This document shows, piece after piece, positions 8,248 to 57,688 of a stretch of 64,000 bases of DNA. Under the pieces are notes generated by a model. That model saw only the letters and a list, made by a program, of their open reading frames with translations, had not been told where the DNA came from and ran no database searches. Source of the DNA: Tricholoma matsutake (taxonomy: Eukaryota; Basidiomycota; Agaricomycetes; Agaricales; Tricholomataceae). A program made the position numbers and the translations under genes. The DNA is taken from contig AP026548.1 in assembly GCA_026075535.2 (NCBI GenBank), positions 3,844,001-3,908,000 of the forward strand. Reading direction: 5' to 3'. The first letter of the stretch is position 1, and every line of letters begins with the position of its first letter.

Positions 8248-10446
8248 TCAGTTATGATCTGAATCTTGACCCACAGACTTCTTCCAATATCGATCATGTG
8301 CAATGTCTCTCTCTATGTCAGAGGGGAGTCGCTGTTCTCCATAGGTATTGCCGGGACAGTTTGGGATTTTCCTCTGCCTGCCTGATCGACGGGGCAATTG
8401 CTGCCATTCCTGTTGATCTTCACGTCTTGGATGAAAGTCCTCAGTGTTAACTGGAGGCGGCGGAGGAGGAGCATTAGTCGCATCATCATGCGCCTTTTGC
8501 TCATTTGGTAAATCATCATCATCATCTTCTAATGATGGAGGAAGGGGCGGATTTTGTGGCGGTATAGGGTCATCGCCATCCGTTCCAGATGAGTGGTCGT
8601 CATCTTCTGGTTCTGGAGGTGGAAAATCACCAAGGTCTGTCTTGGCAGGAGTTTTAGCTCTGGGACAGCATGGGAACATCGTTTCATCAAATAGTGCCGT
8701 GGCACCAATGAATATTGCGCCATTTTGTCGCATGAAACGATATGCTTTAATGCCATCTTCTACTCCAAGGTACGTCATTAACTCCGATCGAGGAGATAAT
8801 GTTGTTGGATGTTTTTCCTTTGGTAGATAGACATAAGCACCGCAACCGAAGACCTTCAGATTGTTTAGATCTGGGCGGACCTTTGTCAGGTCCTCAAAAG
8901 GTGTCAGCCATTTCAGGCGCCTTATTGGGGTTCGGTTGTATAAATGTGTTGCATGTTCTATGCAAAATTCCCACCATGATTGTGGTAGACAAGTGGTGAA
9001 TCGCAAGGTTTGCGACTTTTCCATTATTGTCCTTATGGCGCGCTCTGCGTGCCCGTTCTGTTGATGAACGTGGGGTGCAGACATCTCTATTTTGATGCCT
9101 AAGTCCTTGAGCTGTTTTTGTAGCTCACGATCCTTGAACTCCCCCCCTGGATCGACACGCCAGCGCTTGATTGTAGCGCCATATTGGGTTTTAGCCATCG
9201 CTTGAAATTGTCTAATCGCTGCAGCAGCGTCAGATTTCTTTCTGAGACATTGGACCCAAATATGTGACGTTTTGTCATCCAGAAATACAATGAAGTATTT
9301 ATGTTTGTGGTACGATAGTACCGGGAGTTCCTTTAGGTCAGAATGTATTAATTCAAAGGATTTGTCAGCTCGTGAGTCTGACTCGGGAAAAGATTTTGAG
9401 GTCATTTTCCCTTCTGCACACCCTGGACATATAATTTTGTCTTTAGGAATAATTAAATTCCTTGGGAATTTTATGGTGCTTTTAGGCATTTTACCTAGTG
9501 CCTCTTTGGATGGGTGTCCAAGTCGCCTATGCCAAGTCAAGTAGTCAGCGACATAAATGGTCGCGACATTAACCTTTTTGGTGCTCAATATATGAGTCCG
9601 AGCCCAATAGATCGTGTCATTCCTCCTTAGAGGGACACAATGCATGATTGGGTTTCCATGCTCGATAAATGAAATGTGTGCAGAGGAACCACGCACATCA
9701 CTTCCGTCTTGTAAAAAGACCCCCATTGACATCAATCGAGTATTAATGTCGGGTATGTAGTAGACGGGGTATAACCGCGTTTCACGTGTCTCTGACTTCC
9801 CATGACATACTACCTGGTGTTTAATGAAGACTGCTCCTTTTCCTACTATATGAGTAGTACCAGTGGCCGTTTGGACCAAGGTAGAGTTCTTTCTCGGTAA
9901 AGGCTCGTAAGAAGCGAAATCTTTTATTTCACCAGTGAAGTGTTTTGATGCGCCTGAATCCATGATCCAGTCGGCACCTTTCTTACAATCTCCCTTTGCA
10001 CACATAGCACATATATTAAGATCTAAATAATTCCATGATACGTTTAATAGCGGTAAAATTTCACATGAAAAGTTTGCTGTATTCATAGGAATATTAATCT
10101 TAGTGCTTGTGGCAGGGAAAAGGACTGACCTGTCATCATATGCCCCTGTATCAAGGGGTTCATTGACGAGCATTTTGTCGACGGCTTTCCACACTTCCTC
10201 ATCAGACACCGGAGGTTCAGATCCGAGGGAGACGGTATCGTCTTCTACCTCCTCGATCCTAGACTCGGGTTCTGGTTCTATCCTTCTTCTCTTTCCTTCT
10301 CGCACCATCAGGCGCTCTTCCAGCGGTCGCAGATTTTTTGCGGTGCGCAGAAGTTGCATTTGCTCGAGGGTGTCTCGAGCTTGCTGATATTCAGCATAAA
10401 CCAAACGAGAGGTAGAGGCCGCGCCCGTATATGCCTGTGCAGGCGG
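8248..10446 (-). pseudogene. copia family A protease and integrase
   Basis: In order: an acidic linker, aspartic protease DWIMDSGASKHF, a GAG-prepol/zinc-binding HRRLGHPS...CPGCAEGK (H-H-C-C), and integrase with Asp in LIHSDLKELP, Asp in RVDPGGEF and Glu in QQNGHAERA, i.e. the D,D,E triad. A Pro/Asp-rich linker precedes RT. The frame is the same as gag and RT; TGA codons at 10447-10449 and 8248-8250 bound it. Confidence 0.9.
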
Positions 10447-11358
10447 TCAGCGGCGAGGATCCCTTGTGGGAGTGTGTTCGCGTCTTTCGATGCGCTGTAT
10501 AAGCGGCATCGGCGGTATGATGGCGCCATTACCATTTATGGTGGTATAGGCATTGGAGGCGAGGTGGGTATGTTTATCCTTCGGCTTCTCCTCCTTAGTC
10601 TTTCTGTCCCCACATCGTCCATGCTTTCGGGACGAGTCTCCGTTGCTGTTTTGCCCTTCTTTGGGCTGCCATTTGGGGTTTCCCCCTTTGCGCTTAACAG
10701 CAGAAAGTTTGTTGGCCTGAGGCTGGCCAGCGGGCTTTCCTACTGCTGTGCGCCTTGAGGCTTCAGCGACAATGGAGTCCTTGACATGTTTAAATGTCAA
10801 GGCGCTAGTAGTGGTCATGTTAAGGACCATTGTGGACAAGGAATCGTACTCACGTGGCATCGCAGCAAGTAGAATCATTGCTTGCACTAGCTCGGGGATG
10901 GCGACGTTAGCAGCCATAAGGCACTCAAATTTGTCTGCCATTCTAGCAATCTCCGGTGCGGGGTTTGCAGCCGGGATCTTGATCGCTATTGCAGACCTAA
11001 AGTCCGTGAAGACTTGGGAGGGGCCGTCCACACCATAATCGGTGCGGATGAGATCCCACACCTCCTCAGCAGTGTCCTTTGAGTTGGCACGCTGCCGAAT
11101 GGAGGGGGCCAGGTGGAGCACTAGGCTACCAATGGCCTGGTCATTTTTGTTGCTCCAGGTCTGGAGCTTGGCATTAGCATCCGCTACCAAAGTAGTGTTC
11201 ATCGCCGTCAAGGGAGGTGCTGGGGGCAGTTTTTGCTCCGCCCCGCTAGTTATTTGCCAGAGGCCCTGAGACCTGAGCCACGCCTTCATTGAGTCGGCCC
11301 ATTGAATGTAATTTGATCTGTCGAAAGTTTGAATGAGTTTCTCAAGAGTTGAAGACAT
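10447..11358 (-). CDS. copia family A Gag
   Basis: A 303-residue frame beginning MSSTLEKLIQTFDRSNYIQW, the N-terminal fold of UBN2-type copia Gag, with the usual helical capsid body. The C-terminus is basic (Lys/Arg/Gly) but I see no clean CCHC zinc knuckle; RCGDRKTKEEKPK may be its decayed remains. The ATG follows the 5' LTR leader by about 250 bp. It ends at a TGA in frame with the downstream protease. Confidence 0.85.
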   Translation of the reverse strand: MSSTLEKLIQTFDRSNYIQWADSMKAWLRSQGLWQITSGAEQKLPPAPPLTAMNTTLVADANAKLQTWSNKNDQAIGSLVLHLAPSIRQRANSKDTAEEVWDLIRTDYGVDGPSQVFTDFRSAIAIKIPAANPAPEIARMADKFECLMAANVAIPELVQAMILLAAMPREYDSLSTMVLNMTTTSALTFKHVKDSIVAEASRRTAVGKPAGQPQANKLSAVKRKGGNPKWQPKEGQNSNGDSSRKHGRCGDRKTKEEKPKDKHTHLASNAYTTINGNGAIIPPMPLIQRIERREHTPTRDPRR

Positions 11359-11591
11359 GTTTTGTGGTGGCAGCTGTTAAAAGCGCTCAATCAGTCTTTT
11401 TACTCAATAAAACATGTTTAATGTTCTCAGGAGAAAACACTCCTTCAGAGTGGTTAACCCTAGTCAACCTAGGTTTTATGTGCAGCTCGCAGGGAGCGCA
11501 ATGCAGCTCATGAAGAGCGCAAGGTTATAATTTGGAGACGATGAAGTCAACGTCGTTCGCAGCCAATTAAGGCGCGTTCGCGACGTGCCCA

Positions 11592-20829: not shown

Positions 20830-22284
20830 ATCAGGGCTAAGTGATCAAGCGGCTACCACAGCGGTGCGACGAGCATGCCATGCTTCTTTGATGCGTATGG
20901 CACTTTCTTGGGATTCCTGAACGGCCTTTGCTGTCCTAGTGGTGGCTGATCCACCATCAGGATGCCTTTCAGTTTGGACAGGAATTCAAGAAGAATGGCA
21001 CAGGGGTATGGGGGGTACAGGGGGTGCTAGCAGTGTTGGTGCTTGCTCACATCCATCATCAACTTCAATGATGGGGTTGTGGGCAGGGAAGGGATCATCC
21101 TCCTCATTGTTCACAGGTAGGTAGGTATGAATAGATTTATTGTCCTGAATTTCCATGCATGTTGACTCGGCAGGAGGGATGTCCGGTGAATGGCCATCAT
21201 GACTCTTGAGAAATTTGACATGATATGAACTGTGGACCTTCCTAGTTGCCTGGTTGTAGCAACGGTATGATTTATATTTGGAGTCGTAACCAATTAATAC
21301 ACATTCAATTGACCGCTCAAAGATTTTGGGATTATTCTTCTTAGGAATGAGGACAAAAGCTCGACAGCCAATCTCCTGCCAGTACAAATAATCAGGTTTG
21401 CACTCATACCATAATTCCCAAGGTGTAACACCCTGTAGTGATCGAGTCGTGGTTTTTGCATGCAAATGGGACGCCGTCAAGTAGAATTTGTCCCAAAGAA
21501 ATAGTGGCAATCCCAAGTAGATCCTCATAGTCTGAGCCTTAACCATGAGAGTCCAGTGCATCCATTCCACATGACCAATGTGAGCAGAAGTATGTGGAGC
21601 AGTAAATCGTTGGTCTGTACCTCGTGTTTTCAACCAAGTCTGCATCTTGTGAGACTTCAGTTCACCGTTATCAGTGATGTAGGTCCCAATTTTTAGTCCA
21701 GTCTCATTTTCCCAAGCAAGTTCCCAGGCTTTCAGTTCTGGAAAAGAGTCATCCTTATTTCGCAGAGGTATCGACCAAGGAAAAGACATGTAATCATCAA
21801 CTATATCCATAACATACAAATTCCCATCCCAAGATTTGACAGCATGGGGGCCCAATAAGTCCACCCACACTTTCTCCAGATTTCTCGTCGCTCTATGCCC
21901 TCTCCCCTCTTCACGCATCTTAGGAACAGGAGTTCTGGTCTGTTTACCGAGAACACAAGATTCACATTTAGGGGTTTTAGGGATAGAGCTAATAGGCACA
22001 CCTGTGAGTGCACCCCTTTTCACCATGTCCCAGAGAGACTGATAATTCATGTGACCAAGATGACAGTGCCAGGTTTCTAGGTTGAGAGGTTTGTGTACGG
22101 TAAACACCTGATCAGCAGTAGCAGAATATAGGTTAAGAGTGTAGAGTTTTTTGGAGAGTCGAGATCCCTGAGCAATGAGTGCTCCAGTGGATTTGTCAGT
22201 GATCCAACATAGGGAGTTGTCAAAATGGGCTGTAGTGTTAGAGTTGTCAGCCAGTGTTCCCACTGAAATAAGCCGAACTGCCAC
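20830..22284 (-). pseudogene. copia family B copy 2 integrase
   Basis: A 432-residue frame (22284 to 20986): HCHLGHMNYQSL and CESCVLGKQ form the H-H-C-C finger. Integrase follows with Asp in KVWVDLLGPHAV, Asp in YITDNGELKS and Glu in HIGHVEWMH. Then comes the family linker ending in Pro-rich sequence. The triad is intact; the frame breaks before the RT. A run of ten G lies at about 20813-20822. Confidence 0.88.
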
Positions 22285-22326
22285 ATTAGGAATATAGAGG
22301 GTGTTATATAATGTGATTGATGCGCC

Positions 22327-25320: not shown

Positions 25321-28300
25321 TTAGTCAATGTCTTCAACCTGAAAAATACAACTGTAGAATCACTTGACAAATAAAAGTGAATTACACACAAATCGATTGG
25401 TAAGTGCAATGTTCAGAATAGTATGCTGGAGACCCTCTTGGTCAGCCTCTGACTTTAAGGTACTCTTTGTGATATGTAGCTTTCTGACAGCCTCCTTGAT
25501 AGCAACCCAGTTGGAAGACAACCAAAATTCAGTGTATTTCCTGGCTAGCATCTCAGGTGAGTGATTGAATGAATATTCAGCCAAGATAGCCATAGCTGCA
25601 TGAGAATTGAATAATAAATGATGCAAAGAATTTCTGAAAGATTATACCAAGGAAAAATTGGGTGATTGAGTGGAAGATATTAGAATCATGTATCTGTATT
25701 ACATGGTTAGGAATCAAGAATGAAGTTGAGAGGTCATTACAGGCTGACCATCTCTATAAGTGCAGACTCTTGTTCTTTTGAGAAACTAGCAACAAATTTG
25801 TAAAGCTAAAAAGGCTGAGTAAATGGATAGTAAGCAAGGAATCAAGGTCAAAAATTGATCAAGTGTTACAAACCAGAAAAAACATGCATTGAATAAATAG
25901 ATAAGCAAGTGCAAGAGGTGATATTGATCAAATCAAGAGGCTTACAGCCTATAAGAGCAATCATCAAGAGCAATCATAAATCAATTTACTCAGAAGCAGA
26001 ATAGTTGAAAGTTACATGCTACAAAAAGCAAAACACAATTGAGTATGAGAAAATGGTATGCCATATTTTAAACAGACATTCAACTTACCTCCTGTGATGG
26101 TAAAAGAAAAGAGCATGGAATATGAGAAAGTCACATGCTATATTTAAACAGACATGCAACTTACCCCCTGTGATTGCAAAAGAAAAGAGCATGGAATATG
26201 AGAAAGTGATGTGACATGTTCAAACAGACATGCAACTTACCCGCTGTGATTGCAAAAGAAAAGAGTATGGAATATGAGAAAGTAATGTGCCATGTTCAAA
26301 CAGACATGCAACTTACTAGCTGTGATTGCAAAAGAAAAGAGCATGGAATATGAGAAAGTGATGTCCCATGTTCAAACAGACATGCAGCTTACCCCCTGTG
26401 ATTGCAAAAGAAAAGAGCATGGAATATGAGAAAGTGATGTACCTTGTTCAAACAGACTTGCAACTTACCTCCTGTGATTGCAAAGGAAAAGAGCATGGAA
26501 TATGAGAAAGTAAAGTGCCATGTTCAAACATACTTGCAACTTACCAGCTGTGATTGCAAAGAAAAGAGCATGGAATATGAGAAAGTGATGGGCCATGTTC
26601 AACCAGGCATGCAACTTACCTCCTGTGATTGCAAAAGAAAAGAGCATGGAATATGAGAAAGTGATATGCCATGTTCAAACAGACATGCAACTTACTAGCT
26701 GTGATTGCAAAAGAAAAGAGCATGGAATATGAGAAAGTGAGGTGCCATGTTCAAACAGCCTTGCAACTTACCCCCTGTGATTGCAAAAGAAAAGAGCATG
26801 GAATATGAGAAAGTGATGTCCCATGTTCAAACAGACATGCAACTTACTAGCTGTGATTGCAAAAGAAAAGAGCATGGAATATGAGAAAGTGATGTACCAT
26901 GTTCAAACAGACATGCAACTTACCCGCTGTGATTGCAAAACAAAAGAGTATAGAATATGAGAAAGTGATGTACCATGTTCAAACAGACATGCAACTTACC
27001 CGCTGTGATTGCAAAAGAAAAGAGCATGGAATATGAGAAAGTGATGTCCCATGTTCAAACAGACATGCAACTTACCCGCTGTGATTGCCAAAAAGAAAAG
27101 AGCATGGAATATGAGAAAGTTGTGTGCCATGTTCAAACAGACATGCAACTTACCCCCTGTGGTTGGAAAAGAAAAGAGCATGGAATATGAGAAAGTGATA
27201 TGCCATGTTCAAACAGACATGCAACTTACCCACTGTGATTGCAAAAGAAAAGAGCATGGAATATGAGAAAGTGATGTGCCATATTCAGACAGACTTGCAA
27301 CTTACCCACTGTGATTGCAAAAGAAAAGAGCATAGAATATGAGAAAGTTGTGTGCCATGTTCAAACAGACATGCAACTTACCCCCTGTGATTGCAAAACA
27401 AAAGAGTATAGAATATGAGAAAGTGCTGTGCCATGTTCAAACAGACATGTAACTGACCCACTGTGATTGCAAAAGAAAAGAGCATGGAATATGAGAAAGT
27501 GATGTGCCATGTTCAAACAGACATGCAACTTACCCGCTGTGATTGCAAAAGAAAAGAGCATAGAATATAAGAAAGTGATGTGCCATGTTCAAACGGACAT
27601 GCAACCTACCCCCTGTGATTGCAAAACAAAAGAGCATGGAATATGAGAAAGTGATGTCCCATGTTCAAACAGACTTGCAACTTACCCACTGTGATTGCAA
27701 AAGAAAAGAGCATAGAATATGAGTAAGTTGTGTGCCATGTTCAAACAGACATGCAACTTACTAGCTGTGATTGCAAAAGAATAGAGCATGGAATATGAGA
27801 AAGTGATTTGCCATGTTCAATCAGACATGCAACTTACCCCCTATGATTGCAAAAGAAAAGAGCATGGAATATGAGAAAGTGATGTGCCATGTTCAAACAG
27901 AGATGCAACTTACCCACTGTGATTGCAAAAGAAAAGAGCATGGAATATGAGAAAGTGATGTGCCATGTTCAAACAGCCTTGCAACTTACCCGCTGTGATT
28001 GCAAAAGAAAAGAGCATGGAATATGAGAAAGTGATGTGCCCATGTTCAAACAGACTTGCAACTTACCCCCTGTGATTGCAAAACAAAAGAGCATGGAATA
28101 TGAGAAAGTGATGTGCCATGTTCAAATAGACATGCAACTTACCCGCTGTGATTACAAAAGAAAAGAGCATGGAATATGAGAAAGTGATATGCCATGTTCA
28201 AACAGACTTCCAACTTACTAGCTGTGATTGCAAAAGAAAGAGCATGGAATATGAGAAAGTGATGTGCCATGTTCAGACAGACTTGCAACTTACCAGCTGT

Positions 28301-30226
28301 GATTGCCAAAAAGAAAAGAGCATGGAATATGAGAAAGTGATGTGCCACCAGACATGCAACTTACTCCCTGTGATTGCAAAAGAAAAGACCATAAAATATG
28401 AGAAAGTGATGTGCCATGTTCAAACAGACTTGCAACTCACCCACTGTGATTGCAAAAGAAAAGAGCATGGAATATGAGAAAGTGATGTGGCATATTCAAA
28501 CAGAGATGCAACTTACCCACTGTGATTTCAAAAGAAAAAAGGATGGAATATGAGAAAGTGATCTGCAATATTTAGCCAGACATAGCTAGACATGCCACTT
28601 ACCTGCTGCATTTGGACAAGTAATATAAGCTATCAGAGATTGTCATCAGGGAAAGAACTTACTAGCTAGTATTCCAATGGTATATATAGCATTAAAGATA
28701 AATTGAGTCCAATTCTCACATGTGCCTTACCTCCTAGTATAGTGAACAACAGATAAATTCTGATATAGCAGTATAATCCGATAAAAAGCTTACAGTCTAC
28801 CAAGGGAACATATAAATGTTGTGCAATATAAACTAGACCAAAGTAAACTGCATTACCTCCTATAGCAATTCTAGTTTGTTATATATATTAACAGTTAAAG
28901 TAATACTCTATACATTTAAAATGAATTATTAGTATTTTGCAGCATAAATTCAACCCATTCTTACCACATTCACTGGAAACCAATCACATAGATTTCTAAC
29001 CCATGAAACCCAGTCTTGCAGAATTGTAGCAGAAGAAAATATTTGTTTCAACTTGAAGGTTGCTGCTGCACTTAATATATTCATTAGATTAGCTCTATAT
29101 TTTTATTCAGCTCAGTTTCACAATTTGAAGACCTGGATTCATACTGCACAGCATACCCAAAGGACAGCTCTATTTGATTTCTTTGTGTTGACACAAAAAG
29201 AGCCTGCAGAGCCTTCTTATCAAGCACAGCCGCTGTCTTCTCAACAAGTTCAATGCAATTGCCATCAGGCAAATTCATATCTGTTGTCAACATATTTCAC
29301 CATCATTAATTAGGACACTTTTAAAGCCATACCTCGAAGAATTATGTAAGTCTTTGGAGGATAACGGCATGTGAAAATGGGAAGACTCATGCAAGTCTTC
29401 TGAAAATCCTCCATAGCTCGGCTTTGAGCTTGGTTTGCTGCTTCATTAGGCGAAATTCCTTCATTCTTCAGAGCTTCATATGCATCATCATCGTGAGCAT
29501 CAAACTTGGTGAATACCACAATGACTGGCACTATATTAATTGCATATGAGATATTCCAGTATATACCACTGTGCAATATATTTTGTTACCTTTCCCAGTT
29601 CCAACCTTGGAGAAGAAATCTTCCTCTGCCTTAGTAACAGGCCTTGAACTATCCATTGGGATGCAGTACCTGATCAGACAAAGAAAGACCTCATGTTAAA
29701 TCACCAAGGTATCAACCACTATGTACTAACCATATAGCATGAATTTGGTCCTGCAATTTCCTCTGCTTTGCCTGCTGCTTGATAAATTTCTTTACATCAT
29801 CCAACTCATTTGCACTGCCCGCTTCGAATCCACGCGAGTCATGGAAGACAAAGCCTGGGTTACTTCGAAAAACCATTTCATTCTCAAGATTATGGAGGCC
29901 TCGCTGGAAGGGTGGAATTGATACTCATCAGACAGAATACTAGAGCCAGGCTAAACTGACCCGGATAGATGGTTCGACACTATCCAAGTTGATCTGATTG
30001 AAAGTGTCATGATATGTTGAAGAATTAGACATTCACAACGCACTTTATTTCCCTTGCTATCGCGAATTTCAGGTTGATCGGTGGTTCTGCAAATCTTCTG
30101 TAGAATCGTTGTCTTGCCGGAGTTGGCTCTTCCGATGATTAGAATACGGAAGCGAACAGCTTTCTCGCGAAGTTTCTGGTAGGCACGCTCCTCGTCAGGA
30201 TTGACACTTGAGGCGGGGTTCGACAT
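25321..30226 (-). CDS. P-loop GTPase-like protein with a single-codon-exon array
   Basis: Minus-strand gene. Exons I can place: 30044-30226, 29961-29993, 29731-29903, 29590-29669, 29333-29530, 29145-29280, 28965-29070, then the triplet region, then 25648-25693, 25390-25595 and 25321-25338 (stop 25321-25323). All have GT-AG introns and phases agree. G1 is GRANSGKT (residues 32-39), G3 DSRG (94-97), G4 TKFD (164-167), as in a Ras-like/TRAFAC fold with a nucleotide-binding role. This N-terminal type is common in Agaricomycetes, its function unknown to me. The C-terminus is helical (AMAILAEYSF). Without the triplets the protein has 392 residues. Between 28964 and 25694 lie 41 AG-NNN-GT sites in phase 0; either they are one-codon exons or the whole stretch is one long intron. 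The frame closes both ways. Confidence 0.82.
25741..26018 (-). other. single-codon sites downstream of the array
   Basis: After the last array unit (GAG 26089-26091) come CAT 26016-26018 (TGTAG before, GTAACT after), GCT 25946-25948 (TATAG, GTAAGC) and CCT 25741-25743 (GTCAG, GTAATG). Then an intron with the branch sequence CCTAACC ends at ACAG before exon 25648-25693. The 202 nt between GCT and CCT may hide one or two more units that I cannot resolve. Confidence 0.5.
26041..28575 (-). repeat. 76-bp tandem array, each unit an intron plus one codon
   Basis: About 33 units of 76 (75-78) bp. Read in gene sense, each has a pyrimidine-rich acceptor TTTTCTTTTGCAATCACAG, three variable bases, and the donor GTAAGTTGCATG, with a branch-like TTCTCAT about 30 bases before the AG. 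Excluding the triplet, a unit is a 73-nt intron, a normal fungal size. I read the triplets as GGG 8, CGG 7, TGG 7, CTA 5, GAG 3, CTG 2, GGA 1. AG and GT are retained in every unit; weaker donors occur at about 27450 (GTCAGT), 27602 (GTAGGT) and 28433 (GTGAGT). Flanks are nearly identical while the triplet varies. Confidence 0.85.
28517..28964 (-). other. non-repetitive introns separated by single codons, upstream of the array
   Basis: Between exon 28965-29070 and the array, five further AG-NNN-GT sites stand in unrelated sequence: GAG 28857-28859, ACT 28794-28796, GAG 28731-28733, CTA 28663-28665, CAG 28603-28605; the array begins with TGG at 28517-28519. Implied introns are 105, 60, 60, 65, 57 and 83 nt. 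Acceptors are TATAG, GGTAG, CTAG, CTAG and GCAG; donors are GTAATG, GTAAGC, GTAAGG, GTAAGT and GTAAGT. Splice-site spacing is as strict as in the array although the sequence is not repeated. Confidence 0.6.
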
Positions 30227-38460: not shown

Positions 38461-41400
38461 TCATGCCATGACGCTTGTAAGCAAGGCCATACGAATCTAA
38501 AAGATATGATCAATTGGACTGTCCAAATGGCGGGATTACAACATACAAATAGGCCGTAACGCATCTGTCTGAAATAGACTGCACGTCGAGAATCGAAATC
38601 GACCTCCGGATCAATTTCTGGAGGAGGGGTCAAAAAGTATAAGTGTCCGTTTGATTAGCACGTACCATTGTTCCTAGGCAATGGATGCATGACAATCATA
38701 TCCTCCTTTGCTCTGGAAAGGACGGCGTGGTCGATTCGATATGCGTTTTTCACTTGCTGCCATTCTACCTCACTCTCGAACCTCTCTTTTTGCACACGTG
38801 TCACATACAGGACATCAGTGTCGGCGAGCACCTCGTCTAATGATTCGCAAATAGTGACAGGAATTCCTACCTTCCGAGCAGCAGAGACCACGCTAGAAGG
38901 CATTGCAAGTAATGCAGGGGAGACAAAGTTGAGTCGCACGGAGTGTAGGCAGAGCAATGTAACCAAACTGTGTACAGTTCTTCCGTTTTTCAGATCGCCG
39001 AGAAGAGTAATGGTGCGACCATTAACAGTGCCAAGCTCCGAACGAATAGTGTAGACATCCAAAAGTGCCTAAACTCATTGCTAAGCACCAAAAATCTACA
39101 GTAAGAGTGTGCTCACTTGTGTTGGATGCTCACCGACGCCGTCACCAGCGTTCAGTATAGGGACAGGCGAGAACTTGGCAGCTAGTTGTGCACTTCCCAC
39201 GTCCGGATGACGGATGGCGATTGCATCGCCGTAGCACGCAAGCGTGCGAATGGTGTCAGGTAAACTCTCTCCTTTCACAACCGAGGAAGCATCGACTGCG
39301 GTCTGCACGACTTCGCCACCGCATCGCTTCATAGCAGCGTCGAAAGACGAACTTGTTCTAGTTGATGGCTCGTAGAACAACGTACAGAGAACCTTTCCTT
39401 TGAGGATATCCAAAGTACCGTTGCGTTCAACCTGGAGACGCATTTCGTGAGCGAGAGAGAACAGATCGTACAAATCACGCTGGGTAAATTGTTTAACGGT
39501 AAGAATGTGCCGACGGTGGAACGATGAATGAGGAAGGTGGGAATAAGGATGAGGGGCTTGAACACTTGGCCCGGAGGTTTGTAAGGAGCCTACAGACGTC
39601 CATGCCATGGTGGTTGTGCGTGACGAGGGTTCGGCGACTGGGGAAGTTGGGCGAACTAATGGATTGCCGGGCGCATGACTTACACTGGCTCCAGAAATAT
39701 CCTGTCCAGCTGCTGAGGGGAAGAGCGAACCATCCAGGAAAACCGTATGTCCATGCAATACGACTCGATGTATAGTACCTGATACAACGTGTTGCTCCAA
39801 CGGTGACCACGATGTAGAGTTTGTGAATGGTGTTCTGCGTCCCAAAACAACTTCCACACGTGTGTGCGCTTGGTCGGGTAGACCAAATATCAGAACTGGG
39901 TTATCGTGTAATCTCTTGCGGATATCGTCGAGCGTCAGACGACCATCTGCAACAGCGGTGAGCAATAAAGGAAGAGTTTCATGCAACCCTGTCAAAGGCG
40001 ACTGCACTTTCCCAGCTTCCAATGACAGGCGGTATGGCGCAGCTCCCACGGAAAACATGTCAATCACATCGAGATTTTTCCAGAGCGCCTTTTGATCAGC
40101 CGTGGACGGTAGAGACGAGCTAGGGAATTGATCATGGCTAAAAAATAGGGAGTAGACGGATACGTCGCACGTGACCTTCAAAAGCTTCGCCTTGCTTAGA
40201 GAGATCAGCAGGATATCATCGCTACTCCGTACATCTGTGACATGTACACTGCGGCTGTGGAGGCTGGCCAAAAGGAGGATAGAGGCAAGATCAGAGCCTT
40301 TGGCATCCGTGACGACAGGCTTGTCGATTGGCCAAGATGAAAAATGGGCAGCAACAACCGTCAGAGACATACTCAAATTATCGATCTGGAACGGAATGAA
40401 GAGTGACTTTGCCCCAGCTTGAAGTTCTTCATCCAATGTTTGAGCATTGGTAGATGTGGCAGTGACGCTTAGCGCAAAATTACAATGAGCGGCACCAGCA
40501 GCACTTGATCGGGCTTGCTCGAGAGATGCTCTATCAGAAATTCGAGTATTGGTTCCCCACGGAAGTACTAGAACAGTGGTGAAGCCCGCGCCTATGGATG
40601 CATTTGTAACGGAGAGCATGTCCTCGCTACCCGCTTCGAGCAAGCCAGGGACGAAGGTCGTGATGTTAACGAGTCCTGGAAACGAGTGTGTCAGATGCGA
40701 GCTCTTGGAGTCAATACTTGAAACGTCAAGAGGCAGCTTTCGGACAAGAGCTTCAGCGAGCATTTTGGCATTTTTCACGTTCGTGATTAAAGGAACAGCA
40801 AAGTCAACAGCCATGCGACGAGTATGATATCCCTTGCTGGTGTAGCTGGCTGGTCGACGATAATGATTTTTGGAGGGCAGGTTAATGTACATGTCGATCA
40901 AGTTGTTGGCCAGATGCTGTGTAAGGGAGTATTCCGATTTTTGGTCGTTGTGACTTCCGCCGCCAAGTGTTTCAAGGTACTGAATAGAAACCATCAGCAT
41001 ACGACAGTCCTGAGCTGCGAGTTCTACTTACCTTGCACGAAACATTGTGTTCCGTAAGGAAATCCGCAGTTCCAGACGTCGCGAAGATATTGTATCCCGC
41101 GGCACTAAGCTTCTGTATTGAAGGAAGTAATTCAAGTTTTTCCCGATAGCTGCCAATGGAAAAAAGAATGTTCTTCTTGGGTGGGATGATCCCCGTTGAT
41201 ATCAGGGCTTTCAAGTAGGCCTCATACTTGTCGTGTCCAAAGCACGCCACTTCACCTGTAGATGCCATCTCCACACCAAGGACAGGGTCAGCACCTGACA
41301 GCCGGCTAAAGCTGAACTGAGGAACTTTGATACCGACGTAGTCAGGGGGAAGACCGGCATCGGGATATGCTTCGAAGGGGAGGTCCAACATAGCCTTCGT

Positions 41401-44400
41401 AGCCATTTCAATAGCATCTATTCCAGTGACTTTCGAAACAAAGGGGAATGATCGAGCCGCACGCAGATTACATTCGATGACCTTGATTTCATTGTTTTTG
41501 GCTATGAACTGGATATTAAAGGGACCAGTGACATTAAGCGCATTCCCGATCTTCGCCGTCGCTTCCTCGATTTGTCGAACGGTTTGGGGATCCAGGTCTT
41601 GGGGTGGATGAATCAGGGTCGCATCGCCAGAATGCACGCCGGCATTCTCCACATGCTCCGAAATGTAATGCATGACGAGTTTACCATCTTTCGCGACAGC
41701 GTCCATCTCAATCTCCTTCGCCTGCTCGATGTACTTGGTGATTACGACAGGATGATCTCGCGAAACCGCAGCGGCTTGCGTCAAGTAATTCGAAAGGTCA
41801 TCACCTGTGGAGACGACATTCATGGCCGCGCCAGAGAGAACGTACGAAGGTCGTACGAGGACTGGATAGCCCACTTTATCGCAGAAGATCGTGGCTTCTT
41901 CAAAGCTAGTAAGCTCCTTCCACAGAGGCTGGTCTACACTGATCTCGTCCAGCAGTCGAGAAAATTTGTAACGATTTTCAGCAGTGTCAATCATTTCTGG
42001 AGAGGTCCCGTAAATCTTGACGTTTTGACGGTACAGCGGCAGGGCAATGTTGTTGGGCGTTTGACCTCCCATCGACAAGATGACACCCCGAGCGTGCTCG
42101 GCATCGTAGATATCCAAGATTGTCTCGAGGCTGATGTTCTCAAAATACAAGCGATCGGCTTCGTCGTAGTCTGTGCTGACTGTTTCCGGATTATAGTTGA
42201 CCATGACCGTCTGAAGACCTTGCTCCCGCAAGGTCCTGATCGCCCTCACTGCACACCAATCGAATTCGACAGATGACCCAATCCGATATACACCAGAACC
42301 TAAAACCATTACTCCCCTGTCATTGAAGGACACGTCGTGTTCGATGGCGTTGTATGTGGTGTAAAGATAGTTCGTGAACGCAGGGAATTCCGCAGCGACG
42401 GTGTCGATCTGCTTCACAAACGGCGCAATCCCATGCTCCTGACGGAGCCGGCGCACAGCAAGCTCTGTGGAACCCATGCATGTCGCGAGCTGGCGGTCTG
42501 AAAATCCTAGCTGCTTTGATTGTCGAAGAAGCTCAGGAGAGATCGTAGATACATTACATGACCTTACCAACGGGGGTGTTAGTCTAGGTAACGGATAGAT
42601 TAGAACAATCTGACGCACGAGAGGTGCTGTTCCATTTTAAAGATGTAGTGAAGTTTGGTCAAAAACCACTTGTCGATATTAGTTATCTGCCAGATCTTAT
42701 CAACGCTATACCCCCTATAGAAAGCAGAAGAAATCGCGAAGATACGCTTATCCGTTGGGTTAACGAGTTCTTCATCGATGTTCTCGACGAAGTCGTTCTT
42801 CAAACAGCCAATCGTAAATAACCAGAACTTAGTCGAGCAACCGAAACAGACCTTTGCAAACCCAGCAAACTGGTCATCAATAGCACGAATGGCCTTCTGG
42901 ATGGTCTCTTCGAATGTCCTACCAATGCTCATAACCTCCCCGACACTCTTCATGCTGCTGCTCAGAAGTCGACTGACACGATTAAACTTTTTGAGATCCC
43001 AACGAGGTATCTTCACTACAACGTAATCCAGGCTAGGCTCAAAGCACGCGCTTGTAACCTTTGTGACTGAATTTTTGATTTCGTTAAGCGGAATCCCTAG
43101 ACCAAGTTTGGCAGCGATGAATGCGAGCGGGTAACCGGTAGCCTTGGATGCAAGCGCAGAAGATCTAGATAGCCGAGCGTTTACCTACGATTTGTTGAGC
43201 CCAGTTTTATAGATAAGATATTCTTAGCATTACCTCGATGATGCAATATTCCTGCGACGTTGGGTTCAGGGCGTATTGGATGTTGCATTCGCCAACGACG
43301 CCAAGGTGACGGATAACATTGATGGCTGTGGTCCGGAGCATGTTATAATCTGCATCCGAGAGCGTCTGGGAGGGCGCAACAACGATCGAATCACCGGTAT
43401 GGATGCCCAGAGGATCGAAATTCTGCACAATATGTTCAGCCTCATAAAGCGGATACCGAGTGCAGGTCATACCTCCATATTGCACACAGTGATACAGTTA
43501 CCACGACAATCTCGTACGACCTCATACTCGATTTCTTTCCAGCCTTTCATGCTCTTCTCGACCAACACCTGGGGACTAGTCGCAAATGCCTTACTACAGA
43601 GCGCCCTCAGCTGAGCCTCATCCTGCGCAAATCCAGATCCTAAGCCACCGAGTGCATAGGCAGCACGAACAATGACAGGGAATCCAATTGCTTGGGCAGC
43701 AATGACCGCATCGTCCGGATTCGTGGCCGTGAAACTCTCAGCGCATTTCTCCCCGATACTTTCCATCGCACGGGCAAATAGCTGTCTATCCTCCGTCATG
43801 ATAATGGTTTCGATTGGCGTCCCTAGCACCTGAACCCCAAGTTCCGCGAATTCGTCCTTAAGCTTGATACCGACGTTCAGCGCGGTCTGTCCACCAAAGG
43901 TAACATAGATACCATCTGGCTTCTCGTACTTAATGATCTTCCGCACGAACTCTGGAGTGACAGGCAAAAAGTAAACCTTGTCCGCCAAACCCTTTGAAGT
44001 CGCTATGGTCGCTATGTTCGGGTTGATCATGATCGTATAGATTCCCTCCTCCTTGAGAGCTTTGATGGCTTGTGAGCCCGAATAGTCAAATTCACCTGCC
44101 TGGCCGATGGACAAGCCACCAGACCCAAGAATAATCACCTTTGAGACCTTAGCACGCGGCACACGGCGGCTGTTGTCCTCCAATTTTCCACCACGCATGG
44201 ATATAGCAACCAGGGAGTTCGTCGCGGCGCAATCTGCGATGTTTTGTATAAACACGTCAAACAAAAACTCAGTGTCTCGTGGACCGGGACTTGATTCTGG
44301 ATGGAATTGAACGGAAAAGAATGGCTTGTCTTCACAGTAAATACCCTCATTACTGCCGTCATTCGCGTTTTGAAAAAGTTCCTTCCACCCTGCGGGAAGT

Positions 44401-45554
44401 GAAGCATTGTCGACTTGATAGCCGTGATTTTGACTGGTGATGTAGCATCTACCCGAGAGCGCATCAGTACAGGGTATGTTTTGTCCGCGATTTCCGTATT
44501 TCATTTTGGAAGTGGTGGCCCCAACAGCTAAGGCCATAAGTTGGTGACCAAGGCATATACCGAATATAGGCTTGTCTGCCCTCTCCATTGCCTTTGAGAT
44601 GCGAACCGTAGTGTCCTTGACCATGGTGGGATCACCTGGCCCATTCGAAATGAAAAGTCCATCATAAGGCTCGCCATCAGAAAGAAAGTCATAATCCCAG
44701 GGAACAACTTTGACTTCGACCCCACGCCGCACGAAGCATCGGATCTGGTTGTACTTCATCCCTACGTCAATCGCCACAACGCGCAATAGCCGGCCTGAGG
44801 GATGTAATTTTGCTTCAGCCGTGGGCTGGTATAGCCGAGGAGCGGATATCGATACCGCGGCTACAAGGTTCTTTTGATTGTTGTCGACAAAAGCAATGTC
44901 CAAATAGTCTTCACGCCAGGGGTATGGTGTAGGAGGTGTAGATGCAAGTTGCAGAGGGGATGGCAGAAAATGCGGCCGACTTGAAAATCCATTTGTATTA
45001 CGCGAAAGGACCTTTCCTAACATCGACCCTTTTTCTCTGATCCTTTTCGTAAGTGCGCGGGTATCCACGCCATAAAGTGCGGGAACGCCATTTTCTTTCA
45101 GCCACGTTCCAAGGGAAGAGGAGGCAAGGAAGTGACTGTGGTCCTCAGAGTAGTAACCGACAACAATAGCTGCAACATGAATACGAGACGACTCAAATTC
45201 GAGTGGGAGGTTGTGAAAAGATGTTGGACGCTCAGGGACGCCGTAATTCCCCATAAGCGGATATGTCAACACAAGAATTTGACCTTCATATGAAGGATCA
45301 GTCAACGATTCAGTATATCCCACCATGCCTAACATCCAGGTCACATATGAGCAGTGCCGTCATAGCTTGGCGCACGTTAACTCACCAGTCTGAAAGACAC
45401 ATTCGCCAGCAACGCTTTTTCCCTCTGCACCAAAGCTGATACCTCGAAAGGCAGAGCCGTCGATGAGCTCCAGGAGTCCATCTTGAGGCTCAACGACCCC
45501 GTCGTCGCCCACAGGAGCCGTGGTGACAGGCGGGGCAGGAAGGTTACCGAACAT
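38461..45554 (-). CDS. URA2: URA2: GATase-CPSase II, inactive DHOase-like and ATCase fusion
   Basis: Ten exons: 45386-45554, 43473-45328, 43234-43422, 42852-43184, 42619-42797, 41032-42562, 39117-40979, 38666-39068, 38547-38617, 38461-38496. Their sum is 6630 nt, 2209 residues, close to yeast Ura2. It makes carbamoyl phosphate from glutamine and passes it to aspartate, the first two steps of UMP synthesis. GATase has the Cys of FGICLGHQ (about residue 315) and His/Glu of VQFHPES; two ATP-grasp CPSase halves follow; ATCase has [12 protein letters not shown] and MHPLPRNN. The DHOase-like domain reads [11 protein letters not shown] where active enzymes have H-x-H, so it is structural, as in yeast. 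The UTP-sensing MGS-like region lies near 40979-41090. An upstream in-frame ATG at 45605 would add 17 residues; 45554 fits the family better. Confidence 0.95.
42798..42851 (-). other. 54-nt URA2 intron that is a multiple of three without stops
   Basis: GTCTGTTTCGG...CTGTTTGAAG interrupts [15 protein letters not shown]; the family has no insertion at this place. Retaining it would add 18 residues without breaking the frame. A CTAAG sits in branch position. It is most likely spliced, but silent retention is possible. Confidence 0.6.
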
Positions 45555-55837: not shown

Positions 55838-55945
55838 GGTTATGGGCCACTCCCATCACTTCTGAACGACGGTAGAAAATCTCCTAGCCACTTGGCGTTA
55901 TCTCTACGTCGTCTCCTTTGATCGACAATCTGATCACTTTCCCAT

Positions 55946-57688
55946 TTGGGTTTACAGATCGTCCTTTGTGCAATCAGTCCTCTTGACGATTTCCCCTCAC
56001 CAAATTTTTCATTTGTTTTACCTGCTATGAGCATGCTAGACACTACCCCCCCCTCGGTTATGTTGATCAAACTTTCCATACAATATTCTGGTGAGAAACT
56101 CGACAAGCTTAGGTCGAACTACAAAGAATGGTGCGAAGAAATCACTATCACTCTTTCACTGAATGGTCTCTACAAATATGTCACTGGTGCAATCCCTGCA
56201 CCTACTGCCTCTGAGCCTCGTGCGCTAATTAACTGGAAGGCCAACTCATGGCTCGCATACACGTTCATTGCGTCCAGCATCGCTCCATCTGAACGCCCTT
56301 TCATTGACATAGAGAAACCTACCACTGTGAACTGGGAGACGCTTCGTAAACGACACCAGAATGAAGGCCCTGTTCGACAGGTTCAGTTACTGCAGCAGGC
56401 CCTTATGACACAATGCAGCACTGATACTCCCCTCCCTGAGACGGCCGATAAGATTTGCGCTCTCATTGAGCGTGCATTCACTATGGGAGATATTAAGCCC
56501 GACCTCCTTTGTTGCATAGCTCTTTTAAATTCACTTAGCGACAACTTTCCTCATGCACACTCGATTATCTCTCGTGACATTGCCGCTTCCACAAGGGAAT
56601 CCCCCTATACTTCAAAAGATATTCGTCTTTTCCTTGAAAATGAACAGTCACTTCTTGAGAATGATCACCGCACAGACAACAAATCCTCCGTAGCTCTCAC
56701 TGCTCATACCAAATCGACCAGGCCGTCCAACGGTCTAGTCTGTGGGAATCCAAATTGCAAGAAAGCGGGTCATTTGACCAAGTACTGCATTAAAGTGGGG
56801 GGAGGAATGGCCAGGAAAACGATTGAGGAGTCCGTGGCAGCCTGGAAAGCAGCTCGAGAAAAAGGGAAGAAAGGCGACGCTTTGACAAAACCTTTGAAGG
56901 TACCAATTACTGTGAAGGACGTTAATGGACGAGCTTTCATGGTTATGGTAGACGCAGACCCCCTGGACCATCAGTCCGGTACTCGCCCCCTGTTTGCAGG
57001 ACTTGCTAGTGACCCCCTCCCCACAGTGTCAATTGATGAGGTAGAATATGAGGGCTGGCTTGTCATTGAGGAGGAGGCAAGTACAACTATTGACTGGAGC
57101 CATCACACTTCAACCCCCACGGATGGCGCATTTACTGTTGAACCACTTAGTCAGACACAGTGCTCACAACTTTCCCTTTCCCATTTCCCTTTCATTGTTG
57201 ATACAGGCGCCACAGTCCATATTTCACCAGATAAAGCCGACTTCCTTACTCTTCGACAAATACCACCTCGCCCTGTAAAAGGTGTTGGGGGCTCTTCCAT
57301 CCTTGCTATTGGAATCGGCAACATAAAGTTACGCATCGCCAGGGGCGCATCAATATTATTATGTAACGCGCTCTACATCCCAGATGCGGCAGTCCGACTC
57401 ATCTCTGTCAGTTCACTCACCAATGACTCAAATGCTGTGGCGCACTTTGACAGCTCGTCCTGCTGGGTCATGGATAAATCCACTGGAGCTACCATTGCCC
57501 ATGGGATTTTACTTGATAACAAGAAACTCTATTCACTTCACCTCTATTCTGTCACCGCCGACCATGCTTTGACTATCCACAAGTCCCCTGATCTTGAAAC
57601 CTGGCACCGTCGACTTGGCCATGCAATCGCTTTGGGATATGGCCAAGAAGGGTATGCTTACAGGTGCACCTACCATCTCTGCCCCTAA
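55946..57688 (+). CDS. copia family B copy 3 Gag-protease
   Basis: A 580-codon frame: Gag with LIKLSIQYSGEKLDKLRSNYKEW, the capsid block VRQVQLLQQALMTQCS, the knuckle CGNPNCKKAGHLTKYC (C-x4-C-x4-H-x4-C), the link PITVKDVNGRAFMVM, then the protease FIVDTGATVHISPD with an intact D-T-G-A. It runs into the H-H-C-C region at TWHRRLGH, where a shift ends it. The true start may be the ATG of MSMLDTTPPSVMLIKLS, 27 codons in. Confidence 0.85.
   Translation: MGLQIVLCAISPLDDFPSPNFSFVLPAMSMLDTTPPSVMLIKLSIQYSGEKLDKLRSNYKEWCEEITITLSLNGLYKYVTGAIPAPTASEPRALINWKANSWLAYTFIASSIAPSERPFIDIEKPTTVNWETLRKRHQNEGPVRQVQLLQQALMTQCSTDTPLPETADKICALIERAFTMGDIKPDLLCCIALLNSLSDNFPHAHSIISRDIAASTRESPYTSKDIRLFLENEQSLLENDHRTDNKSSVALTAHTKSTRPSNGLVCGNPNCKKAGHLTKYCIKVGGGMARKTIEESVAAWKAAREKGKKGDALTKPLKVPITVKDVNGRAFMVMVDADPLDHQSGTRPLFAGLASDPLPTVSIDEVEYEGWLVIEEEASTTIDWSHHTSTPTDGAFTVEPLSQTQCSQLSLSHFPFIVDTGATVHISPDKADFLTLRQIPPRPVKGVGGSSILAIGIGNIKLRIARGASILLCNALYIPDAAVRLISVSSLTNDSNAVAHFDSSSCWVMDKSTGATIAHGILLDNKKLYSLHLYSVTADHALTIHKSPDLETWHRRLGHAIALGYGQEGYAYRCTYHLCP

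What the first reader, a model, noticed from the sequence alone, without database searches (positions are those of the whole stretch)
25694..28964. An array of at least 41 single-codon exons in a GTPase gene
Seen directly: between well-defined exons at 28965-29070 and 25648-25693, 41 sites have acceptor AG, exactly three bases, donor GT (most GTAAG). Implied introns are mostly 57-83 nt, the normal fungal range. The upstream exon ends in phase 0 and the downstream one begins in phase 0, so each triplet would be a full codon. Intron-definition splicing, usual in fungi, could remove such introns one at a time, adding one amino acid each. Microexons are known, but a chain of this length of 3-nt exons is not one I know of.
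Basis: partly seen in the sequence, partly recalled or inferred. Interest (0 to 1): 0.95.

Follow-up and report, generated by a model that had tools for sequence, protein, structure and literature searches.

The report
Single-codon exon arrays in mushroom GTPases
A family of mushroom GTPase genes appears to spell a hypervariable stretch of its protein one amino acid per exon, in rows of up to about 40 three-letter exons separated by nearly identical introns, a layout that could let single amino acids be shuffled like cassettes.

Summary
On the minus strand, 40 evenly spaced AG-NNN-GT sites (plus one separate site, making 41) lie between two phase-0 exons of a GTPase gene. The genome (161.0 Mb, 13 contigs) fits the published Tricholoma matsutake assembly. 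The finding is larger than reported: 16 of 20 related loci carry such arrays (8 to 40 codons), in four groups with different intron repeats. Of 351 units counted, 348 keep AG-3nt-GT. None of the 351 codons is a stop (about 20 expected from shuffles), codons are hypervariable while introns are nearly identical, and synonymous differences are depleted. Intron-free homologs on short JGI contigs (probably environmental transcripts) read straight through the same site with inserts of about 25 to 70 residues; one carries what looks like a retained array intron. So the triplets are very probably spliced and translated. The array probably diversifies a recognition surface by copying codon-plus-intron units. 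A precedent exists: reviews report tens of codon-sized, alternatively spliced microexons in truffle NACHT-ANK genes. I therefore rate this a new variant of a known kind. RNA evidence for this gene itself is missing; the nonself-recognition role is inferred.

The parts
28965..30226 (-). GTPase domain: seven predicted exons 30226-30044, 29993-29961, 29903-29731, 29669-29590, 29530-29333, 29280-29133, 29070-28965, ending ...CDWFPVNV in phase 0
   Evidence: open frame of 921 nt; MMR_HSR1 just above its cut-off
25946..28859 (-). array of 40 single-codon exons, ETELQWWGLLRGRWGLWGRWGWWGRRRLGLELEGLRGEHA, from 28857-28859 (GAG) to 25946-25948 (GCT)
26044..28566 (-). homogenised core of the array: 76-bp unit (3-nt codon plus 73-nt intron), 33 copies
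   Evidence: TRF; codon columns diversity 0.66/0.42/0.31 against intron mean 0.079, AG/GT 0, in 27 units of equal length
28603..28964 (-). upstream edge: first intron and divergent units GAG ACT GAG CTA CAG; the first four codons are the same in the six close paralogs
25946..26091 (-). downstream edge: divergent units GAG CAT GCT, the same in the five close paralogs that keep the downstream end (GCC for GCT in L041)
25741..25743 (-). possible 41st single-codon exon (CCT)
   Evidence: AG-CCT-GT kept in the four close paralogs aligned and in L044, weak donor in L041
25301..25693 (-). downstream exons 25693-25648 and from 25595: C-terminal part (IHDSNIFHSITQFFLAMAILAEYSF...NRFV)
   Evidence: open to a stop after NRFVCNSLLFVK in the joined model; a last intron is possible

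Best explanation
The region is a row of about 40 single-codon exons. The spliceosome removes the short introns one by one, each junction adding one residue, and so writes a hypervariable peptide of about 40 residues between the GTPase domain and a C-terminal domain. The array grows, shrinks and is kept homogeneous by duplication and gene conversion of codon-plus-intron units, the introns giving the homology and carrying the splice signals, while selection keeps codons open, non-synonymous and diverse. Shown here: the anatomy, its recurrence in 16 loci, coding constraint, hypervariability, and intron-free homologs with inserts at the same place. Inferred: that this gene is spliced so, the order of splicing, the recombination mechanism, and the purpose (most likely recognition of nonself by an immune-type GTPase).
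For: 16 of 20 loci carry arrays. 348 of 351 units have AG and GT; 0 of 351 codons is a stop (347 codons in 16 arrays: shuffle mean 20.3, minimum 7 of 1000; identical units collapsed, 300 units: 0 against 17.7; only distinct codons of each array, 145: 0 against 7.6); synonymous share of differing codon pairs 1.2% against 4.0% (2.7-5.5%) in shuffles. Gap between AG and GTRAG in the arrays: 3 nt at 312 sites; 2, 5, 7 and 10 nt at none; 44 and 21 sites with 0 and 1 nt, as codons NAG and AGN give by construction; 3 to 10 sites each at 4, 6, 8, 9, 11, 12 nt. In the 13 arrays measured, mean codon diversity is 2.8 to 19 times the intron mean, and AG/GT do not vary among the units compared. Introns that are 100% identical carry different codons in 132 of 154 pairs (C4 group), 62 of 77 (C8), 5 of 9 (C11) and 0 of 2 (C12). 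Ten intron-free homologs on short JGI contigs (P0008, P0010, P0123, P0124, P0133, P0168, P0177, P0200, P0201, P0216) carry inserts after the WFP motif. P0168 and P0201: N-flank 99% identical over 232 aa, insert 44%, C-flank 75%; P0200 equals P0123 through the insert except for 17 extra residues readable as a retained 51-nt GC-AG intron. Of 87 homologs whose ORF ends within 30 aa of the motif, 66 show V followed by S, R or C within 14 aa, as GTAAGT or GTGAGT reads in phase 0 (random 14-mers 14%).
Against: No RNA from T. matsutake was available. That the JGI contigs are transcripts is inferred from intron-free ORFs on 1.5-2.6 kb contigs, and their own genomic arrays were not seen. Four units have lost a canonical site: L049 donor AT, L044 donor GC and acceptor AA, L048 first donor GA. 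The annotated T. matsutake protein P0001 stops before the array. Not every pair of homologs differs: P0123 and P0200 share the 45-residue insert exactly though their N-flanks are 93% identical. Not every homolog has an insert: intron-free P0051 and P0187 and Suillus gene models P0121, P0066, P0172, P0176, P0193 (8-15 residues) have short segments there. In C4 and C8 identical introns are hardly better predictors of an identical codon than introns in general, which a simple copy-then-mutate model does not predict.
Confidence: 0.84

Rival explanations
1. The region is one 3.3-kb intron holding a minisatellite whose unit happens to contain AG-NNN-GT; the triplets are never translated.
For: The core is a tandem repeat, and repeats can carry chance motifs in chains: antisense AAA x11 and CAT x15, a background chain of 7 with 5-nt spacing.
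Against: Chance motifs on the antisense strand have fixed triplets, while the sense codons are the most variable stretch in 12 of 13 arrays; no stops against about 20 expected and depletion of synonymous pairs; four different intron repeats in four gene groups keep the same design; homologs read through the site.
Confidence: 0.06
2. The triplets are real exons but mainly serve combinatorial alternative splicing: single transcripts include only some codons, making many isoforms, as reported for truffle NACHT-ANK genes.
For: All units are phase 0, so any subset keeps frame; precedent in Tuber.
Against: The one pair with the same array (P0123, P0200) includes the same 45 residues; short introns favour intron definition (established knowledge). 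Assembled contigs would hide rare isoforms, so this is open and can hold together with the best explanation.
Confidence: 0.25
3. The introns are introner-like elements that invaded an ordinary coding stretch between successive codons, so codons are diverse because they are old and introns alike because they are young.
For: Introns nearly identical, codons diverse, and identical introns carry any codon; introners are known in fungi (listing and abstract starts).
Against: 81 of 85 genome hits to the C11 19-mer lie in the arrays, the other 4 having two mismatches; all 95 and 45 hits returned for the C8 and C4 units lie in arrays, though that DNA search scores only the best candidates. Insertion after every third base in one phase is implausible; array lengths differ between paralogs, and blocks such as GCA TTT TTT TTT recur in L049 with nearly the same introns.
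Confidence: 0.05

Closest known systems
[quoted passage not shown] 2012; known to me here only from passages of PMC3689799, PMC4986451 and PMC10197012)
   Same: Tens of 3-bp microexons in an expanded fungal gene family suspected of nonself recognition, thought to diversify a sensor.
   Different: Ascomycete STAND proteins with NACHT and ankyrin repeats, diversity ascribed to alternative splicing; here a basidiomycete GTPase without NACHT or ankyrin at Pfam cut-off, with diversity visible in the genomic codons. The Iotti paper itself is not held, so whether its introns form homogenised arrays is unknown to me.
Micro-exon genes (MEGs) of schistosomes and tapeworms (PMC7653826 passages, PMC10526429 abstract passage)
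   Same: Runs of short exons divisible by three; exons of 3 bp occur; protein variation.
   Different: MEG exons range from 3 to 81 bp with introns up to 5 kb and encode secreted proteins; here every array exon is 3 nt, with introns of 50-112 nt, mostly tandem copies.
Podospora HNWD / NLRs with highly conserved repeats (PMC4986451 passages)
   Same: Near-identical repeats with concerted evolution and diversity focused on a few codons per repeat.
   Different: Their repeats are coding WD, ANK or TPR repeats; here almost the whole repeat is intron and one codon is coding.
Introner-like elements
   Same: Near-identical introns in many copies.
   Different: Here found in tandem arrays of one gene family, not dispersed.
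Immunity-related GTPases (IRGs)

Membership tests
MMR_HSR1-type GTPase | Pfam PF01926 at gathering score | tested here: met
   22.1 bits against 21.9; GRANSGKTT P-loop in the sequence (motif recalled)
Tuber nank-like NLR | NACHT domain | tested here: not met
   NACHT E 0.14, 12.4 bits against cut-off 26.7
Tuber nank-like NLR | ankyrin repeats | tested here: not met
   no ankyrin family among the 18 listed at E up to 1
Tuber nank-like NLR | tens of codon-sized microexons | tested here: met
   as genomic anatomy, 8 to 40 per array
Tuber nank-like NLR | alternative splicing of the microexons | not testable with these tools
   no RNA reads available
Micro-exon gene (definition in PMC7653826) | at least 7 exons, at least half under 70 nt and divisible by 3, runs of at least 4 | tested here: met
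   41 of 50 exons of the window model are 3 nt; a prediction, not an annotation from RNA
Micro-exon gene | secreted product, long introns | not tested
   no signal-peptide prediction run; array introns are short (50-112 nt)
Introner-like element family | near-identical introns dispersed in many unrelated genes | tested here: not met
   C11 unit: 81 of 85 hits in arrays, 4 others with two mismatches; C8 and C4 units: all hits returned are in arrays, lower-bound search; C12 unit not searched
Immunity-related GTPase | IRG fold over the whole chain | tested here: inconclusive

The most novel reading that the evidence does not exclude
Each residue of a recognition loop is its own genetic cassette: a single-codon exon wrapped in a homogenised intron that serves as recombination homology and is removed from the RNA. 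Copying and conversion of cassettes within and between paralogs makes a combinatorial peptide repertoire across mushroom-forming fungi, a DNA-level codon-shuffling receptor system, possibly multiplied by alternative splicing.
Probability: 0.5. Interest if true: 0.94.

Novelty: new variant of a known kind. Interest (0 to 1): 0.84.

Why it matters
If right, a mushroom cell must splice about 40 introns in a row around 3-nt exons, too short for ordinary exon recognition, so strictly serial splicing becomes testable. It is also a new way to make a hypervariable protein region: codons evolve as separate cassettes while the repeat that carries them is removed before translation. The groups lean on a small set of residues (glutamate or aspartate, arginine, glycine or alanine, leucine and aromatics). 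The one annotated protein of this gene type stops short of the array and many homologous models end at the same place, so such domains are probably missed often in Agaricomycetes.

Tried and rejected
Minisatellite in one long intron: rejected on stops, codon diversity, paralogs and intron-free homologs. Introners: thought unlikely, units not seen outside the arrays. Genes on the other strand: antisense chains have fixed triplets. My first L044 reading was shifted by one base; one search corrects it, and the numbers quoted are. Structure search gave only weak IRG likeness; families not listed there are not excluded.

Literature: nine searches, of which seven aimed at microexons; their listings show no report of arrays of 3-nt exons in basidiomycetes. 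Only the top of each listing was seen and most subscription papers are not held, so this is weak evidence of absence. Single or scattered microexons in a basidiomycete are in print: P. chrysosporium P450 genes with exons of 2-10 codons (passages of PMC1184071). The abstract of PMC11121469 says functional microexons had not been described in filamentous fungi before 2024, against the Tuber reports (passages).

Rows dropped: two arrays (L049, L051) had too few units of one length and L040, L044 and L053 were left out; only units of the commonest length, over 80% like the consensus, were compared. In one search, 114 of 256 proteins had no motif by a crude pattern and were dropped. I read 60 of the 256 protein sequences returned and judged the inserts by eye; the others were only scanned by script. 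One search leaves out the window's CCT site and the broken first unit of L048. Partial extra G-domain matches at C8:2016404, C12:1691817, C4:3296466 and C4:3721513 lie in fetched loci and show no array of their own. The random-genome control was not obtained; flanks and the rest of the window served instead.
Full report
WHAT WAS REPORTED AND WHAT IS THERE. The minus strand between 28964 and 25694 holds 60 AG-NNN-GT matches, of which 40 form an evenly spaced chain with 57-83-nt introns (codon coordinates). The core is a 76-bp tandem repeat of 33 copies, each copy a 3-nt codon plus a 73-nt intron; at both edges the units have diverged too far for the repeat finder but keep AG-NNN-GTAA. Seven upstream exons, the 41 codons and two downstream exons give one open frame of 441 aa. 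The genome has 161,040,721 bases in 13 contigs, which fits the T. matsutake telomere-to-telomere assembly (13 sequences, 161.0 Mb; start of the abstract of PMC10211490 in the listing), and the annotated T. matsutake protein P0001 is 92% identical to the GTPase part.

THE FAMILY. Protein searches of the genome (best candidates only) lead to 20 loci including the window. Sixteen carry arrays of 8 to 40 codons, L040 has only the first four before unrelated sequence takes over, and L053, L056 and L057 have none. The arrays fall in four groups with different intron repeats: C11/C13 (73 nt), C8 with L052 (58 nt), C12 (about 65-67 nt) and C4 (68 nt). Arrays of paralogs differ in length and codon order, while edge codons are shared within the C11/C13 group (GAG ACT GAG CTA at the start of all seven loci; GAG CAT GCT or GCC at the end of the six that keep it).

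CODING CONSTRAINT. Of 351 units counted, 348 have AG before and GT after the triplet; the exceptions are one GC donor, one AT donor and one AA acceptor. One search found one more broken unit outside the count (L048, donor GA). None of the 351 codons is a stop; shuffling each codon position within the 16 arrays gives 20.3 stops on average (minimum 7 in 1000), 17.7 after collapsing identical units, and 7.6 are expected if each array's distinct codons (145 in all) are counted once. Differing codons are synonymous in 1.2% of pairs against 4.0% in shuffles. The third base is C in only 3 of 351, as expected if U1 pairing disfavours C there (inference). In the 13 arrays that could be measured, mean codon diversity exceeds intron diversity 2.8- to 19-fold, and AG and GT do not vary among the units compared; in L041 (6 units) one intron stretch varies more than the codon. 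Introns that are 100% identical usually carry different codons in the two most homogeneous groups (132 of 154 pairs in C4, 62 of 77 in C8; 5 of 9 in C11, 0 of 2 in C12). Of 334 introns, 271 contain a CTNAY branch-point match (the consensus is recalled).

CONTROLS. In 365,172 background bases (both strands) the longest 3-nt chain is 2; a 5-nt spacing gave a chain of 7, so repeats alone can produce chains. Antisense chains in the arrays have an invariant triplet. What sets the sense chains apart is therefore not the spacing but the hypervariable, never-stop triplet.

INTRON-FREE HOMOLOGS. Three protein searches (1144, 1094 and 517 hits, best 120 listed each) gave 256 listed proteins; the named ones come from genera that I know as Agaricomycetes (recalled). 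I read 60. Ten on JGI contigs of 1.5-2.6 kb (P0008, P0010, P0123, P0124, P0133, P0168, P0177, P0200, P0201, P0216; judged by eye) run without introns through the WFP motif into a stretch of restricted alphabet; in eight of them (not P0010 or P0133) the conserved C-terminal domain follows. Examples: P0008 ...YHLEYHHREEEEYHHHHHYLEYEEYL..., P0010 ...HARARAREELREELERNNEEEKEEKEL.... P0168 and P0201 are 99% identical before the site and 75% after, but 44% within; P0124 and P0177 80, 83 and 40%; P0008 and P0010 83% before and 32% within. P0200 repeats P0123's insert exactly and adds 17 residues beginning AS and ending YQ, which reads as a retained 51-nt GC-AG intron. P0133 ends its insert in VSFF and a stop, and P0010 in VSMLF... 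and a stop, as a retained GTAAGT intron would read. Other intron-free homologs, P0051 and P0187, have no long insert. Of 87 homologs whose ORF ends within 30 aa of the motif, 66 show V followed by S, R or C within 14 aa (random 14%). The NCBI model of Laccaria bicolor P0166 has a like insert. That the JGI contigs are transcripts is inferred.

HOW IT PROBABLY WORKS. Introns of this size are recognised as units in fungi (established knowledge), so successive introns could be removed one at a time, each adding a codon. At the DNA level the introns give long homology, so units can be duplicated, lost and converted; a block GCA TTT TTT TTT recurs in L049 with nearly the same introns. Selection keeps the codons open and diverse. 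By analogy with Podospora HNWD and truffle nank genes, nonself recognition is the likeliest use; I give that about 0.5. How codons diverge so much faster than the introns around them is not explained: strong diversifying selection together with constraint on introns is the simplest idea.

KNOWN OR NEW. [quoted passage not shown] 2012, not held). MEGs of flatworms also have exons down to 3 bp, and scattered microexons of 2-10 codons are reported in a basidiomycete's P450 genes. The present family differs in protein type, in phylum from Tuber, and in the tandem array of homogenised introns with hypervariable codons. Seven literature searches aimed at microexons listed no report of it (see Tried and rejected).

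Noticed in passing
L045-L048 and L052, within 190 nt upstream of the arrays: Upstream of the array lies CTCAG (TTCAG in L048) directly followed by GTGAG, a zero-length exon like a recursive splice site, in all five genes; in the four whose printed stretch reaches far enough (not L048) another codon-sized site AG-GAT-GTAAGT precedes it.
   Followed up: partly
L040: A close paralog whose array breaks off after four codons and runs into unrelated sequence; probably disrupted.
   Followed up: partly
L044, L048, L049: Single units with lost or GC splice sites (donors AT, GC, GA; acceptor AA), showing limited decay or tolerated exceptions.
   Followed up: partly
window 8248-11376, 20986-22326 (-) and 55934-57688 (+): Copia-type retrotransposon ORFs in the window.
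   Followed up: no
window 39096-45359 (-): ORFs matching carbamoyl-phosphate synthase and aspartate carbamoyltransferase domains, probably the fused pyrimidine-synthesis gene.
   Followed up: no
P0122 (Serendipita), P0085 (Suillus), P0129 (Athelia): NCBI gene models end in periodic peptides of about 22-25 residues that look like read-through of such arrays, hinting that arrays occur in several orders (by eye).
   Followed up: no
background: A chain of seven sites with a 5-nt spacing in one repeat of the flanks; not examined.
   Followed up: no
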